Positions 23,574 through 50,147 of a DNA stretch of 50,485 nucleotides are shown in pieces. This DNA comes from an endosymbiont of Lamellibrachia barhami. Lineage in GTDB: Bacteria; Pseudomonadota; Gammaproteobacteria; Chromatiales; Chromatiaceae. Positions within the stretch are counted from its first letter, which is position 1, and each line of letters starts with the position of its first letter. The notes under the pieces are model-generated. The model worked only from the letters and a program-made list of their open reading frames with translations, ran no database searches and was not told where the DNA came from. A program made the position numbers and the translations under genes. The stretch covers positions 4,011,422 to 4,061,906 of the forward strand of contig NZ_JAAVSH020000001.1 of assembly GCF_011947365.2 (NCBI RefSeq). The letters run 5' to 3'.

Positions 23574-24197
23574 ATGCAGCGTATCTTCCTATTGGGCGTC
23601 ATTGTGTTGTTGAGCGGCTTGCTGATATGGGTGGCGCTGTTCTGGGCTCCTCAGTCTGACAGTGTGCCCAGTCACGAACAACTCTCCATCTCCGCAACAC
23701 CCGTTGGCGGCAATTTTGCGCTTGAATCACATCTGGGGCCTGTATCGCTGAACGATTATCGGGGTAAGGTTGTCATCCTCTATTTTGGCTATACCTGGTG
23801 CCCGGATATCTGCCCGACGAGTCTGGGTTTTCTCAGCATGGCCCTGAACGAACTGACTGAGGATGAGCTTGCCGGGGTACAGCCGCTGTTCATCAGCGTC
23901 GATCCCAAGCGCGATTCACTGGAGCGGCTCAGGGTGTATGGGGAGTACTTCCATCCAAGCATTTTAGGTGTCACAGGTTTGCCGGAAGCCGTGGAGGAGG
24001 CCGCAGAGAAATATGGCGCAGCCTATAGCATCGTAGAACAGCTCACTGAATCCAATTATGTGGTGGATCACTCGGCGGATACTTACTTTATCGACCGGGA
24101 GGGAGAGCTGACGAAAGTGATGCCTCATGGTACACCACCCGAAGAGATGTTGGCCCTGATGAGACGAATGCTGTCAGAAGGGGCGGCGAATCAATAG
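23574..24197 (+). CDS. SCO1/SenC/PrrC-family copper chaperone
   Basis: This 207-residue thioredoxin-fold protein delivers copper to, or reduces, the CuA site of cytochrome oxidase or other periplasmic copper enzymes. An N-terminal anchor (residues 4-24) holds it to the inner membrane. The copper ligands are the two cysteines of YTWCPDICPT near residues 77 and 81 and the histidine of VVDHSADTYF near residue 166. No oxidase genes adjoin it. The last codon and stop (TAG) lie in the first bases of a REP-like element. A second SCO domain occurs in the window at 46459-47892. Confidence 0.92.
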   Translation: MQRIFLLGVIVLLSGLLIWVALFWAPQSDSVPSHEQLSISATPVGGNFALESHLGPVSLNDYRGKVVILYFGYTWCPDICPTSLGFLSMALNELTEDELAGVQPLFISVDPKRDSLERLRVYGEYFHPSILGVTGLPEAVEEAAEKYGAAYSIVEQLTESNYVVDHSADTYFIDREGELTKVMPHGTPPEEMLALMRRMLSEGAANQ

Positions 24198-28804: not shown

Positions 28805-30337
28805 ATGAATGAGAGGATCGATGATATCACCATCGTGGGTGGCGGTGCGGCAGGCTGGTTGATGGGTCTGTTCCTGACCACGATGCTGAACAAGGGGGAG
28901 TCCAAAGTCAAGGTGACCCTGATAGAGTCGCCAAATATTCCGACCATCGGCGTTGGCGAAGGGACGGTGACGGGTTTTCCCCGCTTGCTCCAGCAACTGG
29001 GCATCAAGGAGAGCGAATTCCTGCGTAAATCCGATGCCACCTTCAAATGCGCAGGAAAATTTGTAGGCTGGAATCTGGATGCCCAGGGCAAACCGACCAC
29101 CTTCTATAATCCCTTTAACGTGGGTGGATACGTCGGCGGTTTTGAAACAGGTTATTACTACCAAAAATATGGCAACGCACCAGGTGCGAGCAGTTTTGTC
29201 GATAGCATCATGCCGACTCAGATGGTGGTGGAAAACCAGCTTGGTCCAAAATTGATAGGCGCAAAGGATTACGAGAGTCCCGTACCCTATACCTACCATC
29301 TGCACGCCCACGACTTTTCCAGGCAGATCGCAAATATTGCGAAAAAGAGGGGGGTCGTACATATCCTGGACGAGATGGTGGACGCGGAACAGGATGAGAA
29401 CGGCTATATCACGGCGCTCAACCTGAAAGAGAAGGGACGTGTGCCGGTAAAACTGGTGATCGATTGTACCGGTTTCAGAGGGCGTATATTGCAGCAGGTG
29501 TTGAAAGAGCCCTATAACGAATTTGGTAACCACTTGCTGTGTGACCGTGCCATCCCCATCCCTCATCCCCATGAAGATCCTAAGAGACTGACTCCGTGCA
29601 CCACCGCAACGGCGATGAAGGCGGGTTGGACGTTCGATGTGCCACTCTATAGCAGAATGGGTACGGGTTACGTTTACTCAAGTCGTTTCATCTCCGATGA
29701 TGAAGCATTGGATGAACTGATCAGACACATCGGCGATGAATCCCTGCGGGAAAGAACGCCACCGGTGATCAAGATGCGGGTAGGCCGGGTACGCAACACC
29801 TGGGTAAAGAATGTTATCGCCACCGGCCTTTCAGCAGGCTTTGTGGAGCCACTGGAGGCTTCCGCGATCTATACCATCGAGATGACGGCGCGCATGCTGC
29901 TGACCTATTATCCTGAGCAGGGCATCGAGCAGAAGACAGTCGACCGCTTCAATGAAGTCATGAACCGGATGTATAATGAGATTCTCTCCTTCATCGTCAT
30001 GACCTACTACACTTCCAACCGTACCGAGCCCTTCTGGGTTGCCGCCCGTGAGGATATCGATCTGCCAGACAGACTGCGGGAAAATCTTGAGATGTGGCAA
30101 TCATTCATGCCGTCACCTCATGATGTCGAGGGCAAATTTCTCTTCAGCCACTGGAACTATATCTATGTCCTGCTCGGTAAAGGTTATTTCGAGGGACGCC
30201 ATTTTCCGGCTGAACGTTTCCTTGTCAAAAGTGACTGGACGCGTTTTTCCAATCATATAGCAGAGGTCAAACGACAGATGAAACAACAACTGCCTTCGCA
30301 TTATGATCTGCTTAAAGCGATTCGGAGTGGGAGGTAA
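28805..30337 (+). CDS. Flavin-dependent tryptophan-halogenase-family protein
   Basis: This 510-residue FAD protein belongs to the tryptophan halogenase family. The dinucleotide motif VGGGAAGW (residues 11-18), the GVGEGTV loop near residue 54 and TFKCAGKFVGWN near residue 80, which covers the catalytic-lysine region, are all present. The WxWxIP signature of classical halogenases is replaced by GWTFDVP near residue 275, so the chemistry or substrate may differ. GFVEPLEAS near residue 345 is typical of the family. No biosynthetic cluster or flavin reductase adjoins it. It is preceded by the TSUP permease and followed by zwf. A halogenase role is probable but not proven. Confidence 0.85.
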   Translation: MNERIDDITIVGGGAAGWLMGLFLTTMLNKGESKVKVTLIESPNIPTIGVGEGTVTGFPRLLQQLGIKESEFLRKSDATFKCAGKFVGWNLDAQGKPTTFYNPFNVGGYVGGFETGYYYQKYGNAPGASSFVDSIMPTQMVVENQLGPKLIGAKDYESPVPYTYHLHAHDFSRQIANIAKKRGVVHILDEMVDAEQDENGYITALNLKEKGRVPVKLVIDCTGFRGRILQQVLKEPYNEFGNHLLCDRAIPIPHPHEDPKRLTPCTTATAMKAGWTFDVPLYSRMGTGYVYSSRFISDDEALDELIRHIGDESLRERTPPVIKMRVGRVRNTWVKNVIATGLSAGFVEPLEASAIYTIEMTARMLLTYYPEQGIEQKTVDRFNEVMNRMYNEILSFIVMTYYTSNRTEPFWVAAREDIDLPDRLRENLEMWQSFMPSPHDVEGKFLFSHWNYIYVLLGKGYFEGRHFPAERFLVKSDWTRFSNHIAEVKRQMKQQLPSHYDLLKAIRSGR

Positions 30338-45992: not shown

Positions 45993-46106
45993 CTGCGAAT
46001 AGTTACGCGTGTCATGAAATTCTTCATCACACCGCGAATTTGATCTAAAACAGTGACAGAAAGATCAGGTATGCCTAGAATGCCGCGCTTACTTGAGAGT
46101 GTCTGC

Positions 46107-46448
46107 ATGAAATTCAATCGAATCCCAGCTGTTCTGTTATTGACCTTGTTTTTTCAAGGTGCAACTGTTGCTGCGACTGATCAGCAGTTTGCAGCGATCA
46201 AGCGTCTGGGAGAGCTCAACGGTGTGGCCCTGCACTGCCGTTATCTGGAGCAGACCCAGAAAATGAAAAGAGTGCTGGTGATGACGCTTCCCAAACGCAG
46301 GCAGTTGGGAGAGTTGTTCGATATTGAAACCAATACCTCCTTCATGAGTTTTATGGCGGCACAGGCTACCTGTCCGGATGTGCATACATTCAAAAAGCAG
46401 GTGGATACCGCTATGCAGCAACTTGAAACTGTTTTTAGCAAACCCTAA
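46107..46448 (+). CDS. Small exported protein of unknown function before the nos genes
   Basis: This 113-residue protein begins at the ATG at 46107, where a signal peptide starts (KFNR, hydrophobic core, ending TVAA); upstream in-frame starts give a polar leader and are unlikely. The mature protein of about 90 residues has two cysteines (C44 in ALHCRYLEQ and one in QATCPDVHTF), probably a disulfide, and is helical. I do not recognise the family. Only ten bases separate its stop from the ZnuA-like/SCO gene, so they are almost certainly co-transcribed. A role in periplasmic copper-enzyme maturation is inferred from context only. Confidence 0.7.
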   Translation: MKFNRIPAVLLLTLFFQGATVAATDQQFAAIKRLGELNGVALHCRYLEQTQKMKRVLVMTLPKRRQLGELFDIETNTSFMSFMAAQATCPDVHTFKKQVDTAMQQLETVFSKP

Positions 46449-46458
46449 GCCGATTATT

Positions 46459-47892
46459 ATGTGGTTCAAACGTTACCTATTATCTCTGTGTGTCGCTTTC
46501 GGCCTTATTTTCTCAGGACAGACTCTCCTTGCGGATGACAGTTTTGATGTCGTTGTCAGTATCAAGCCGATCCACTCCATCTTGGCTGGCCTTATGGAAG
46601 GCACAAAAGGCCCGCAGCTACTTGTGAGTGGGGAGCAGAGCCCCCTTGAATTCAAACCAACTGACCAGCAGAAGCATGCTATGCAGTCTGCAGATCTGGT
46701 CATCTGGGTCGGCCCGGAGTTGGAGACGCATCTGGCGGAATCGATAGCCGCGCTTGAATCCCGGGTAAGGGTAATTGAGCTTTTGTCGAGCCAAAGCATG
46801 AAGATTCTGCTTTCGCGGGGTGATGATACACAACGTGACCCTTTTTTCTGGCTCGATGACCGGAATATCATCATTTTGTTGGATGATCTTACCCATTTGC
46901 TGGTGGAGGCAGACCCGCTCCGAACCCATATCTACCAACAAAACAGACGCAAGCTGATGCAGCGCCTCACCCGTCTCGACCGGGAGTACGAGTACGGTTA
47001 TCGAGGATTGAAGGCGGGATTGGGTGTGCAGTATTACGACACACTTCACTATTTTGAACAGGCTTATGCGCTGACGGTGCTCGAACATATGGGTATCTCT
47101 CCAAGGCAACCTGGGGATGCGGCTTCGCTGTTCAAGGTGCGGCAGCGCATCGTGGACGGTGAGGCAGTGTGCCTGTTGATAGAAGCAGGCATGCCTGCGG
47201 AGCATGCAGGGCTTTTGACTCAGGGGCAGGAAGTCAATGTCGGCAGGCTCGATAGCCTGGGCATCAATCTAAAGCCGGGTCCCGAGCTCTATTTCCAACT
47301 GATGGATCACAATACGGATACCATCAAGCGTTGTCTGAATGCGGATATGGGGGCAGCGGAACAGGCGCGTATCACCGCTGATAGTAGTGGTATTCCCGAT
47401 CAGGAGGGTATCGGTGGGCGTTTCATCCTGACCGACCATCTTGGTAGAACGCTCACCGAAGATGACATGCGGGGAGGTTATCACCTGCTCTATTTCGGTT
47501 ATACCTACTGTCCGGATATCTGTCCCACAACCCTGCAGGTGCTGTCACTGGCTTTGGACGAACTGGGTGAAAAGGCCAAGTTGATACAGCCCTATTTCAT
47601 CACCATCGATCCGGAACGGGATAGCGTCAAGGTGATGCGTAACTATGTAGAGTACTTTGATTCCCGGTTGATCGGGGTGACTGGTTCAAAGCCGATGATT
47701 GAGCGTGTTGCCGCCCAGTTCAAGGTAAAATATGAAAAGGTGGAGGAGGAGTTGGCTGATCCCAACTTCTACATTATGGATCACTCCGCCAGCCTCTATC
47801 TATTGGGACCGGACGGCCGCTTTATAAAAAAGTATGTCTATGGCATTACCGCTGAACAGTTGGCTCAGGCGTTGCTTGAGGTTCTGCCCTAA
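46459..47892 (+). CDS. Fusion of a ligand-depleted ZnuA-like domain and a SCO copper-chaperone domain
   Basis: This 477-residue periplasmic protein starts at 46459 with a signal peptide (residues 1-25). Residues about 28-305 follow the ZnuA-type metal substrate-binding fold: DVVVSIKPIHSILAGLMEG, then SADLVIWVGPELE, and VGRLDSLG. Yet the three zinc-ligand histidine positions are replaced: SPH becomes SPL near residue 62, DPHFW becomes DPFFW near residue 131, and the HD-x-YFE histidine becomes tyrosine in YYDTLHYFE near residue 193. Residues about 325-477 are a complete SCO domain with YTYCPDICPTT near residue 350 and IMDHSASLY near residue 440. It lies 155 bp before nosZ. A dedicated copper chaperone for NosZ is the likely role. 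Confidence 0.85.
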   Translation: MWFKRYLLSLCVAFGLIFSGQTLLADDSFDVVVSIKPIHSILAGLMEGTKGPQLLVSGEQSPLEFKPTDQQKHAMQSADLVIWVGPELETHLAESIAALESRVRVIELLSSQSMKILLSRGDDTQRDPFFWLDDRNIIILLDDLTHLLVEADPLRTHIYQQNRRKLMQRLTRLDREYEYGYRGLKAGLGVQYYDTLHYFEQAYALTVLEHMGISPRQPGDAASLFKVRQRIVDGEAVCLLIEAGMPAEHAGLLTQGQEVNVGRLDSLGINLKPGPELYFQLMDHNTDTIKRCLNADMGAAEQARITADSSGIPDQEGIGGRFILTDHLGRTLTEDDMRGGYHLLYFGYTYCPDICPTTLQVLSLALDELGEKAKLIQPYFITIDPERDSVKVMRNYVEYFDSRLIGVTGSKPMIERVAAQFKVKYEKVEEELADPNFYIMDHSASLYLLGPDGRFIKKYVYGITAEQLAQALLEVLP

Positions 47893-47940: not shown

Positions 47941-47954
47941 TTGACCAAAATCAA
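47941..47954 (+). promoter_or_regulatory. FNR/DNR-type site before nosZ
   Basis: TTGAC, four bases, then ATCAA is one base from the FNR/DNR consensus TTGAT-N4-ATCAA. A -10-like TAGACT lies at 47975-47980, so a start near 47988 would place the site at about -40.5, the class II activator position. This suits oxygen-limited or nitric-oxide-dependent control of nosZ. Confidence 0.7.
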
Positions 47955-48047: not shown

Positions 48048-50147
48048 ATGAAGAAAAGCACCAAACAGTTATGTACGGCGCTTGTGGGCCTGGGTATTGG
48101 GCTAGGAGCGGCTTCAAGCAGTTTCGCCCAGCAGTCTCTCAAAGATGTGATGCAGGCGCGTGGCCTGACTCAGAAAGACCTGCTGGCAGCAGCCAAGACC
48201 TACACGCCAACCGGTGGGCGCGATGAGTATCTGGCTTTCAGTTCAGGCGGCCAAAGCGGCCATGTGATCGTATACGGCATTCCGTCGATGCGCATCCTGA
48301 AATACATCGGTGTTTTCACCCCGGAGCCTTGGCAGGGTTATGGCTTCGATGATGAGTCCAAGGCAGTATTGGCTCAGGGTAATATCCAGGGTAAACAGAT
48401 CAACTATGGTGATACCCACCATCCGGCCTTCTCCGAGACCAATGGTGAGTACAACGGTAAATACCTGTTTATCAATGACAAGGCCAATCCGCGTATCGCG
48501 GTAATCGATCTGCATGATTTTGAAACCAAGCAGATCGTCGTAAACCCTTTCATGAGGTCCGATCACGGTGGTGCATTTGTCACCCCGAATACGGAGTACG
48601 TGATGGAGGCCTCCCAGTATGCTACTCCTGTCGGTGACGAGTTCGTGCCGCTGGAAGAGTTCAACGAGAAATATCGTGGCGCTCTGACCTACTGGAAGTT
48701 CGACATGAAGAAGGGCAAAATTCTGCCCGAGAAATCCTTCACCTTTGAATTGCCTCCCTACAGTCAGGATCTCTCTGATGCAGGTAAAGGCCCATCAATG
48801 GGATGGGGTTTCACCAACTCCTTCTGCTCCGAGCGTTATGTCGGTGGTATCGAGCGTGGACGTCCTCCTTTCGAGGCGGGTTGTTCGCAGAAAGATACTG
48901 ACTTCATGCACGTAACCAACTGGAAAAAGGCTGCGGAGCTGGTCGCTGCCGGTAAGGTGCACAAGGTCAATGGCGCTTACCAGATCACCATGAAACAGGC
49001 CGTTAAAGAAGGTCTGCTCTATTTGATCCCCGAGCCAAAAAGTCCCCACGGTGTTGATGTAAGCCCGGACGGCACTCACATCATTGTCTCTGGCAAGCTC
49101 GACAGCCATGCCTGGGTCTACAGCTGGCCCAAGATCAAGAAGGCCATCGACAGCAAGAAGTTCGAAGGCAAAGATCCCTATGGCATACCGATTATCGCCA
49201 TGAAGGATGCTCTGCATACGCAAGTGCAGGTGGGCCTGGGTCCGCTGCATACACAGTATGATTCCAAAGAGTGCGTGGTCTACACCTCTATCTATGTGGA
49301 TTCCATGGTCACCAAGTGGGACTACTGCAAAGGTAAGGTGCTGGATCAACTGCTGCATATCCACTACAACATCGGTCACTTGTTGACAATGGAAGGCGAC
49401 TCCGTCTCTCCTGACGGCAAGTATCTGGTCGCCCTCAACAAGCTGGCTATCGATCGCTTCAATCCTGTCGGTCCACTGCATCCGCAGAACCATCAGCTGA
49501 TCGATATCAGTGGCGACAAGATGCAACTGCTCTACGATATGCCGCTGCCGCTGGGTGAACCCCACTACGTTGTGGCAATCAAGGCCGACAAGCTGAAACC
49601 TGCGGTTCGCTACAAGTCCGGTTGGGACAGCCGTGCCAACAAGATATCACCCTGGAAGACCCGTGCCGGTCGCGAGAAGGTGGTTCGCAAAGATGGTGTA
49701 GTGCATATCTACGGTACCGTTATCCGTTCCCATATCACGCCTGAGATCATCGAGGTTGAAGAGGGTGAGACTGTCTCTATCCATCTGACCAATCTGGAGC
49801 GTGCAGAGGACGAGACCCATGGTTTCGCCATGTACGGCCAGAACGTCAATCTCTCGATTGAGCCTGGCAAGACCGTATCCGCCACCTTCGTGGCTGATAA
49901 GGCTGGTGTCTATCCCTACTACTGCACCGAGTTCTGCTCCGCGCTCCATCTGGAGATGCAGGGTTACCTGCTGGTCAAACCCAAGGGTTATGTGGCCAAA
50001 ACTGGCGCGAAGATGACGGAAGGTCAGAAGTACACCAAGGCTGATTTCGACAAGCAGGTCAAGGTCAATATCGACACCCAGGCTATAATCAACTCGGTGG
50101 TGGTTTTATCACTGCTCAATAACTACAAGGACTTCTTGAAGTTGTAG
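48048..50147 (+). CDS. nosZ: Nitrous-oxide reductase, Sec-dependent (clade II type)
   Basis: This 699-residue periplasmic copper enzyme reduces N2O to N2. The signal peptide (residues 1-27) has no twin arginine, so export is by Sec, a clade II trait. The seven-bladed propeller holds the CuZ histidines, including DTHHPAF near residue 123, RSDHGGAF near residue 173 and PHGVDVS near residue 336. The C-terminal cupredoxin domain has the complete CuA motif YYCTEFCSALHLEMQG near residues 625-638 and an upstream histidine in ETHGFAMYG. A GGGGAAGGGG ribosome site precedes the ATG. The frame stops at a TAG soon after the cupredoxin domain, and coding-like sequence continues in other frames to 50355. 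Confidence 0.93.
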   Translation: MKKSTKQLCTALVGLGIGLGAASSSFAQQSLKDVMQARGLTQKDLLAAAKTYTPTGGRDEYLAFSSGGQSGHVIVYGIPSMRILKYIGVFTPEPWQGYGFDDESKAVLAQGNIQGKQINYGDTHHPAFSETNGEYNGKYLFINDKANPRIAVIDLHDFETKQIVVNPFMRSDHGGAFVTPNTEYVMEASQYATPVGDEFVPLEEFNEKYRGALTYWKFDMKKGKILPEKSFTFELPPYSQDLSDAGKGPSMGWGFTNSFCSERYVGGIERGRPPFEAGCSQKDTDFMHVTNWKKAAELVAAGKVHKVNGAYQITMKQAVKEGLLYLIPEPKSPHGVDVSPDGTHIIVSGKLDSHAWVYSWPKIKKAIDSKKFEGKDPYGIPIIAMKDALHTQVQVGLGPLHTQYDSKECVVYTSIYVDSMVTKWDYCKGKVLDQLLHIHYNIGHLLTMEGDSVSPDGKYLVALNKLAIDRFNPVGPLHPQNHQLIDISGDKMQLLYDMPLPLGEPHYVVAIKADKLKPAVRYKSGWDSRANKISPWKTRAGREKVVRKDGVVHIYGTVIRSHITPEIIEVEEGETVSIHLTNLERAEDETHGFAMYGQNVNLSIEPGKTVSATFVADKAGVYPYYCTEFCSALHLEMQGYLLVKPKGYVAKTGAKMTEGQKYTKADFDKQVKVNIDTQAIINSVVVLSLLNNYKDFLKL

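What the first reader, a model, noticed from the sequence alone, without database searches (positions are those of the whole stretch)
46459..47892. ZnuA-like domain stripped of its metal histidines, fused to a SCO copper chaperone beside nosZ
Seen: an N-terminal half with the ZnuA backbone pattern but with Leu, Phe and Tyr at the three zinc-histidine positions, followed by a SCO domain with both cysteines and the histidine intact. Known: ZnuA-type proteins bind zinc with those histidines; SCO proteins place copper into CuA sites; NosZ needs copper for CuA and CuZ. Inference: the ZnuA-like half no longer captures zinc and may act as a docking platform that presents the SCO domain to NosZ or to a partner, making a single-chain metallochaperone for N2O reductase. 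I do not know this fusion as a described nos maturation factor.
Basis: partly seen in the sequence, partly recalled or inferred. Interest (0 to 1): 0.72.

Follow-up and report, generated by a model that had tools for sequence, protein, structure and literature searches.

The report
Fused copper chaperone for N2O reductase
A tubeworm-symbiont bacterium and its relatives carry a protein that joins a zinc-carrier-like domain, usually without its zinc-binding residues, to a copper-delivery domain, and because it is found mostly in genomes with the enzyme that destroys the greenhouse gas N2O, it is probably a part used to build that enzyme.

Summary
Window 46459-47892 is one 477-aa ORF: Pfam ZnuA at 31-292, SCO1-SenC at 319-455. 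The three zinc-histidine positions of ZnuA are L63, F129 and Y193; D265 remains; the SCO ligands C351, C355 and H442 are intact. The architecture is conserved: 60 of 194 sampled family genomes and some of other families carry it. All three histidines occur in only 2 of 64 distinct fused sequences.

Only 24 of 62 fusion genes lie within 10.2 kb of nosZ. Genome-wide, 52 of 60 carriers have a nosZ match (50 over the clade II cut-off), and 5 of the other 8 keep NosD or an adjacent NosY. The tie to cytochrome oxidase is weaker, and the window's genus shows no CoxB.

A two-cysteine secreted protein of no known family is encoded just upstream in 62 of 62 cases and is fused to SCO in two genomes.

Best reading: a soluble NosZ maturation factor; SCO serves the CuA site, the ZnuA-like half is a metal-blind docking module replacing the membrane anchor. 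My searches found no published description.

The parts
46459..47892 (+). ZnuA-like/SCO fusion protein, 477 aa, predicted secreted and soluble
   Evidence: highest 19-residue hydropathy after residue 30 is 1.17; signal peptide judged by eye
46549..47334 (+). ZnuA-like domain (residues 31-292)
   Evidence: Pfam PF01297, E 4.5e-36
46645..46647 (+). L63, at the first ZnuA metal histidine
   Evidence: alignment with canonical ZnuA
46843..46845 (+). F129, at the second ZnuA metal histidine
47035..47037 (+). Y193, at the third ZnuA metal histidine
47251..47253 (+). D265, retained acidic residue of the ZnuA site
47413..47823 (+). SCO1/SenC domain (residues 319-455)
   Evidence: Pfam PF02630, E 5.5e-46
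47509..47523 (+). CxxxC motif of SCO, C351 and C355
   Evidence: invariant in 16 aligned fusions; residues checked
47782..47784 (+). H442, SCO histidine ligand
   Evidence: invariant in 16 aligned fusions; residue checked
46107..46448 (+). SMALL: secreted 113-aa protein of no known family with two invariant cysteines (C44, C89), 10 bp before the fusion
   Evidence: alignment A2; upstream on the same strand of 62 of 62 fusion genes in the family sample, gap 12-203 bases between matched stretches; no significant Pfam, NCBIfam or PDB match
48048..50147 (+). nosZ, clade II (Sec-type); its 3' end departs from relatives near an assembly gap
   Evidence: TIGR04246 873 bits, cut-off 625
47941..47954 (+). 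FNR/DNR-like box TTGACCAAAATCAA, 107 bp before the nosZ start
   Evidence: 1 mismatch to TTGATN4ATCAA; the window-wide count (2) is no more than chance (mean 1.84), but boxes with 0-1 mismatch lie at -95 to -110 in 8 of 9 loci compared
46040..46053 (+). weak FNR-like box upstream of SMALL
   Evidence: 2 mismatches; same or nearly the same in the three other loci of the genus compared
23574..24197 (+). paralogous SCO protein with an N-terminal hydrophobic segment, for contrast
   Evidence: Pfam SCO1-SenC E 1.5e-37; 19-residue hydropathy 2.88 near the N-terminus

Best explanation
The protein is a secreted, soluble maturation factor dedicated to clade II N2O reductase. Its SCO domain binds copper through C351, C355 and H442 and supplies copper, or reduces the cysteines, for the CuA site of NosZ, most importantly when copper is scarce. 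The ZnuA-like domain is a former zinc-binding protein whose metal site has been filled, in most members by aromatic residues; it no longer takes up zinc and serves as a docking module in place of the membrane anchor of ordinary SCO proteins. The small two-cysteine protein encoded just upstream is a third part of the same module, probably a partner of the SCO domain. Shown by sequence: the domains, the residue changes, the conserved upstream partner, and the genome-wide link with nos genes. Inferred: copper delivery to CuA, docking, and interaction with SMALL and NosZ.
For: Family sample (194 genomes): 52 of 60 fusion carriers have a nosZ match (50 over the clade II cut-off, G454 and G545 as fragments); over the cut-off it is 50 of 60 against 28 of 134 non-carriers, Fisher p 1.4e-16. 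Of the 8 carriers without a nosZ match, G536 and G551 have NosD over cut-off, G440 and G460 have NosD pieces, and G011 keeps a NosY (73% identical) beside SMALL and next to a transposase-like gene; G480, G483 and G500 (72-82% complete) show neither nosZ nor NosD. Genus level, counted by hand: 16 of 18 fusion genera have nosZ, 15 of 43 others, p 1.6e-4. Class sample: all 9 fused or split carriers are among the 21 of 369 genomes with nosZ over cut-off. Outside the class: G638, and G656 (fusion cut at a contig end), have clade II nosZ. Genus g310: nine genomes listed with CoxB; the fusion is in four, of which three have nosZ and one NosD; the other five have no nosZ match. The six genomes of the window's genus have nosZ and no CoxB match; G021 has neither CoxB nor ccoN match yet has fusion and nosZ. 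The fusion sits at nos loci in different ways: upstream of nosZ (window, L164), downstream of nosY (L112, L115, L165), divergent from nosZ (L039). SMALL is upstream of 62 of 62 fusion genes and fused directly to SCO in G406 and G351. No His, Met or Cys is newly fixed in the ZnuA half, while about ten other positions are. The review PMC7558416 (passages) says deletion of senC2, pcuC and Pden_4445 in P. denitrificans lowers N2O reduction at low copper.
Against: 38 of 62 fusion genes are not within 20 kb of nosZ, two of them megabases away on the same contig; draft contigs may hide some links. 28 family genomes with nosZ over the cut-off lack the fusion, so it is not generally needed. Fusion also associates, more weakly, with CoxB (33 of 60 against 31 of 134, p 2.7e-5). 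A second, membrane-type SCO in the same genome could serve NosZ. Six genomes of genus g23, G406 and G158 have nosZ, SMALL and SCO with no ZnuA-like half found at the threshold used, so that half is not essential to the module. Conservation around the old metal site is not significantly higher than in the rest of the domain (p 0.28). No structure, copper-binding or mutant data. Genomes in the counts are related, which inflates the p-values.
Confidence: 0.6

Rival explanations
1. The ZnuA-like half still binds a ligand, not zinc: a copper complex, another metal held by fewer protein ligands, or a small organic molecule. The fusion then gathers that ligand and passes copper to its own SCO domain.
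For: The disulfide-type cysteines C238 and C292 are kept, D265 is mostly kept (D in 54 of 64, N in 10), and residues such as D127, W131, D133, R135, N136 and Y198 to A204 are nearly invariant. Two members of genus g8 have all three histidines in the same nosZ-adjacent setting.
Against: No newly conserved metal ligands. The pocket residues vary between H, L, F, Y, W, Q, G and D. Conservation there is not significantly above the rest of the domain (p 0.28). No ABC-3 (ZnuB-type) permease was seen among the selected neighbours scanned.
Confidence: 0.2
2. The fusion is a general periplasmic copper or thiol-redox factor for heme-copper oxidases and goes with nosZ only because both work in low-oxygen respiration.
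For: SCO proteins serve cytochrome oxidases; fusion and CoxB co-occur somewhat (p 2.7e-5); 23 of 24 CoxB-less carriers tested have ccoN of cbb3 oxidase.
Against: 24 carriers with nosZ have no CoxB match. In g310 CoxB is in all nine genomes listed and ccoN matches in all nine (G551 as pieces), but the fusion is in only four. G021 has neither oxidase subunit match but has fusion and nosZ. 14 of 19 genomes tested that lack fusion and nosZ have ccoN.
Confidence: 0.12
3. The ZnuA-like half is a vestige: a decaying zinc-binding gene fused to a neighbouring SCO gene and kept only as a secretion leader.
For: SMALL with SCO and no ZnuA-like half occurs in relatives (g23, G406, G158); pocket residues drift.
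Against: The half is full length in all 64 fused sequences (at least 263 of 271 query residues aligned) and keeps many invariant residues; about ten positions became fixed only in the fusion family. Where it is separate (G047, G351) it persists as its own open reading frame.
Confidence: 0.08

Closest known systems
SCO1/SenC copper chaperones (Pfam PF02630; SenC2 of Paracoccus denitrificans)
   Same: Same domain over the curated cut-off, with CxxxC and histidine; role in CuA assembly of oxidase, and proposed for N2O reductase (reviews PMC9145763 and PMC7558416, passages).
   Different: No membrane anchor found; carries a ZnuA-like domain instead; goes with nos genes more than with oxidase genes.
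ZnuA zinc-binding proteins (Pfam PF01297)
   Same: Same domain by sequence, over the Pfam cut-off, similar length, cysteine pair kept.
   Different: Metal histidines replaced in nearly all members; no ABC importer genes beside it in the window; below the NCBIfam ZnuA cut-off (106 against 268 bits); fused to SCO.
NosL
   Same: Copper chaperone for N2O reductase encoded in nos operons.
   Different: No NosL match in the fusion; NosL is reported to serve CuZ (PMC6530538, passages). This genome has its own NosL-like gene in the nos operon (PF05573, 25.4 bits against 24).
SCO family gene upstream of clade II nosZ in other phyla
   Same: PMC13122619 (passages) describes a SCO gene upstream of nosZ in an acidobacterium and in Opitutus terrae.
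   Different: The passages read name a SCO family protein and say nothing of a ZnuA-like half; I did not examine those genes.

Membership tests
SCO1/SenC | Domain match over curated cut-off | tested here: met
   156.3 bits against 22.8
SCO1/SenC | CxxxC and distal histidine | tested here: met
   C351, C355, H442 invariant in 16 aligned fusions. In 64 fused sequences a CxxxC pattern was found in all; the histidine pattern was missed in three: L052 has SHT with H kept, L132 ends right at its histidine and L142 before it, both at contig ends
SCO1/SenC | Membrane anchor (transmembrane segment or lipid) | tested here: not met
   Signal-peptide-like N-terminus by eye and no hydrophobic segment after residue 30 by a simple hydropathy scan; the paralog at 23574-24197 has one
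SCO1/SenC | Binds copper and acts on a CuA site | not testable with these tools
   needs purified protein or a mutant
ZnuA | Domain match over Pfam cut-off | tested here: met
   125.1 bits against 29
ZnuA | Three metal-binding histidines | tested here: not met
   L63, F129, Y193; all three H in 2 of 64 fused sequences
ZnuA | NCBIfam equivalog cut-off | tested here: not met
   106.2 bits against 268
ZnuA | Gene beside ZnuB and ZnuC | tested here: not met
   Neighbours are SMALL and nosZ; the genome's canonical ZnuA lies beside an ABC-3 permease and an ATPase
nos accessory factor | Genome-wide co-occurrence with nosZ | tested here: met
   50 of 60 carriers against 28 of 134 non-carriers over the cut-off, Fisher p 1.4e-16; 9 of 9 in the class sample
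nos accessory factor | Consistent gene linkage to nosZ | tested here: inconclusive
   24 of 62 within 10.2 kb; the rest far away, on another contig, or in genomes without a nosZ match
nos accessory factor | Required for active NosZ | not testable with these tools
   needs a deletion strain
FNR/DNR regulon | FNR box upstream of the operon | tested here: inconclusive
   Good box before nosZ in 8 of 9 loci; before SMALL only a weak box in the window and three others of its genus, a perfect one in L027 and L029, none in L025, L026 and L034

The most novel reading that the evidence does not exclude
A previously undescribed three-part CuA maturation module for clade II N2O reductase: a new family of small two-cysteine secreted proteins (SMALL), a SCO domain, and a zinc-binding-protein fold that has lost metal binding and become a soluble docking arm. 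The parts are naturally found as ZnuA-like-SCO, as SMALL-SCO, or as separate genes in nosZ-bearing genomes.
Probability: 0.35. Interest if true: 0.75.

Novelty: new variant of a known kind. Interest (0 to 1): 0.6.

Why it matters
NosZ is described as the only known enzyme that reduces N2O to N2 (abstract of PMC13122619), and how its CuA site is filled, above all in clade II organisms, is poorly known (my reading of the passages cited). A fusion that goes with clade II nosZ names a specific candidate, plus an unnamed partner protein, that can be deleted and assayed. It would also be a clear case of a metal-uptake binding protein recruited as a metal-blind module of a chaperone.

Tried and rejected
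Rejected: frameshift or assembly origin of the fusion (same ORF in dozens of genomes). Rejected: histidines at shifted positions. Rejected: nosZ adjacency as the rule. Tried without result: naming SMALL (no significant Pfam, NCBIfam or PDB match, best E 0.0061, 0.031 and 0.41; no match in plasmids at E 0.01). Tried with a negative answer: higher conservation around the old metal site (p 0.28). No place covering at least 80% of the query was found in 72,556 plasmid records. Literature searches found no description of the fusion (two searches asked other things); the library holds open-licence papers only. Papers were seen as passages only: PMC6530538, PMC7558416, PMC9145763, PMC11218638, PMC7787665, PMC13122619, PMC6152468, PMC11409646, PMC6769254, PMC5387054; other papers as search listings.

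Rows dropped before counts: in the family sample 70 genomes matched the fusion profile; I dropped seven with the SCO half only (G027, G406, G439, G469, G517, G529, G553) and three with canonical-type ZnuA only (G014, G017, G028), leaving 60. In the class sample 17 matched; I dropped G158 (SCO only) and seven ZnuA-only genomes, whose ZnuA keeps all three histidines, leaving nine. Nine nosZ genomes were classed as clade I by score, by hand. Limits: the group searches used evenly drawn samples (194 family, 369 class, 299 phylum genomes) and a fusion threshold of E 1e-60, so distant fusions would be missed. The tool cut its lists of non-matching genomes, so g310 genomes without CoxB would not be seen, and the five fusion-negative g310 genomes were not searched for NosD. 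With nosZ alone the g310 contrast is 3 of 4 against 0 of 5, p 0.048; the p 0.008 counts NosD for one side only. The trees are quick ones without bootstrap.

Full report
What is there. Window 46459-47892 (+) encodes 477 residues. Pfam finds ZnuA at residues 31-292 and SCO1-SenC at 319-455, both far above cut-off. The N-terminus looks like a cleavable signal peptide (by eye) and no membrane segment follows (hydropathy scan), so the product is probably soluble in the periplasm. Ten bases upstream ends a 113-aa secreted protein (46107-46448), called SMALL here. nosZ of clade II starts 155 bp downstream (TIGR04246, 873 bits against 625). Beyond the window follow a cytochrome c-type protein, a 398-aa protein without a family match, NosD, NapG- and NapH-like proteins, an ABC ATPase, a NosL-like protein and an ABC-2 permease. 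I call the last set NosG, NosH, NosF, NosL and NosY by position and resemblance; those names are recalled.

The zinc site. The same genome has an ordinary ZnuA beside an ABC-3 permease and an ATPase. Aligned with it and three other canonical copies, the fusion has L63, F129 and Y193 where they have histidine, and keeps D265. That these histidines are the zinc ligands is established knowledge of ZnuA, recalled here. In 64 distinct fused sequences site 1 is Y 23, F 17, W 8, L 7, H 5, Q 2, G 2; site 2 is F 43, Y 14, H 3, W 3, L 1; site 3 is Y 25, F 19, H 16, L 2, D 1, Q 1. Two sequences, G432 and G515 of genus g8, have all three histidines and lie within 0.5 kb of nosZ like their siblings. In a quick tree the ZnuA-like halves form one group apart from canonical ZnuA (support 100), and the two three-histidine sequences are nested inside it. 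Fewest-change counts give 5, 3 and 8 changes at the three sites; whether histidine was regained or repeatedly lost is not settled. Against a still-working pocket: the flanks of the three sites are not significantly more conserved than the rest (p 0.28). Among 46 sequences under 80% alike, no His, Met or Cys became newly fixed, but by my reading about ten other positions did: K36, K115, R135, E178, Y181, R182, Q201, A202, A204, and position 225, which is L in 45 of 46 but F in the window's own protein.

The SCO half. C351, C355 and H442 are invariant in the 16 sequences of A1. In the 64 fused sequences a CxxxC pattern was found in all; the histidine pattern was not found in three, one of which keeps the histidine in another context and two of which end at contig ends.

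Where it occurs. The closest named relatives, at 92-93% identity, are endosymbionts of the tubeworms Escarpia and Lamellibrachia; further ones are Sedimenticola MAGs, symbionts of Ctena orbiculata and unnamed gammaproteobacteria. In 194 sampled genomes of the family, 60 carry the fusion, counting five that are cut or frameshifted. In a class sample of 369, nine carry it fused or split. In a phylum sample of 299, two genomes outside the class match, G638 in full and G656 cut at a contig end.

Link with nos. 24 of 62 fusion genes are within 10.2 kb of nosZ; two are 1.8 and 2.3 Mb away on the same contig; 28 are on another contig than nosZ and 8 are in genomes without a nosZ match. Yet 52 of 60 carriers have a nosZ match, 50 of them over the clade II cut-off and two (G454, G545) as fragments; over the cut-off it is 50 of 60 against 28 of 134 non-carriers (p 1.4e-16). 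Of the eight carriers without nosZ, two have NosD over cut-off and two have NosD pieces; G011 has SMALL and the fusion directly beside a NosY 73% identical to the window genome's, next to an integrase-core gene, which looks like a broken nos locus; G480, G483 and G500 (72-82% complete) show neither nosZ nor NosD. At genus level, counted by hand, the figures are 16 of 18 against 15 of 43 (p 1.6e-4). In the class sample all nine carriers are among the 21 of 369 with nosZ over cut-off, and both genomes from outside the class have it too. The fusion lies upstream of nosZ in the window and L164, downstream of nosY in L112, L115 and L165, and divergent from nosZ in L039, so the association comes in more than one arrangement. 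In seven sampled nosZ loci of family genomes without the fusion (L096-L098 and L100-L103) no SCO match was seen within the stretch. Relatedness of genomes weakens all these p-values, and 28 family genomes have clade II nosZ without the fusion.

Link with oxidases. CoxB is found in 33 of 60 carriers and 31 of 134 others (p 2.7e-5), a weaker association. 24 carriers with nosZ have no CoxB match, among them all six genomes of the window's genus. In genus g310 nine genomes are listed with CoxB, and ccoN matches in all nine (G551 as pieces); the fusion is in four, three with nosZ and one with NosD, and the other five have no nosZ match but were not searched for NosD (nosZ alone p 0.048). ccoN was found in 23 of 24 CoxB-less carriers, 9 of 9 g310 genomes and 14 of 19 genomes tested without fusion and nosZ. 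So NosZ is the better candidate target, and in the window's genus it is the only CuA protein that these searches found.

SMALL and other arrangements. SMALL lies upstream on the same strand of 62 of 62 fusion genes, 12-203 bases away. It also occurs in nine genomes without the fusion: six of genus g23 and G406 have SCO beside or fused to it, and the hits in G019 and G547 are partial, at contig ends. It has two invariant cysteines, C44 and C89, and no significant match in Pfam, NCBIfam or PDB. In G406 and G351 SMALL and SCO are one ORF; G351 also has a separate ZnuA-like gene without the histidines. G047 has SMALL with SCO and a ZnuA-like gene on different contigs. In G638 the run is DsbB-like, DsbA-like, SMALL, fusion, which fits thiol chemistry. 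These recombinations suggest that the three parts work together; that is inference.

Regulation. A box one mismatch from the FNR consensus lies 107 bp before nosZ. Window-wide such boxes are no more frequent than chance (2 found, 1.84 expected), but boxes with 0-1 mismatch lie at -95 to -110 in 8 of 9 loci compared; before SMALL a good box is present in L027 and L029 only.

How it probably works. The SCO domain is taken to do what SCO proteins do at CuA sites. A review passage reports that senC2, pcuC and Pden_4445 mutants of P. denitrificans reduce less N2O at low copper (PMC7558416). The ZnuA-like half, having lost metal ligands and gained fixed charged and polar residues, most likely binds a protein partner and takes the place of the membrane anchor.

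Known or new. A SCO gene beside clade II nosZ is in print (PMC13122619, passages). The fusion with a ZnuA-like domain, its genome-wide link with nos, and SMALL were not found in print by the searches named, which cover open-licence papers only. I rate it a new variant of a known kind.

Noticed in passing
window 48048-50147 and just beyond the window (L035:5908-6198, then L035:6290-7423): nosZ of the window stops matching relatives after about residue 696; an N gap and a second nosZ C-terminal piece follow. It looks like an assembly seam rather than a real truncation.
   Followed up: partly
L042:9028-12554 (genome G011): SMALL and fusion sit beside a lone NosY-like gene and an integrase-core gene in a 99% complete genome with no nosZ or NosD match: a possible lost nos operon.
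   Followed up: partly
L094 (G515) and L121 (G432): Fusions with all three ZnuA histidines, nested among siblings without them; a natural comparison pair for metal-binding tests.
   Followed up: partly
L105:9027-9884 (G406) and L066 (G351): SMALL and SCO fused in one ORF, an alternative joining of the same parts.
   Followed up: partly
L162:9468-12577 (G638): DsbB-like and DsbA-like genes directly before SMALL and the fusion, same strand.
   Followed up: no
window 28805-30337: Tryptophan halogenase-type flavoprotein (PF04820, E 8.4e-120), next to glucose-6-phosphate dehydrogenase.
   Followed up: no
L045:7891-10476: Canonical ZnuA divergent from ABC-3 permease and ATPase genes: apparently the genome's ordinary zinc uptake set.
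   Followed up: yes
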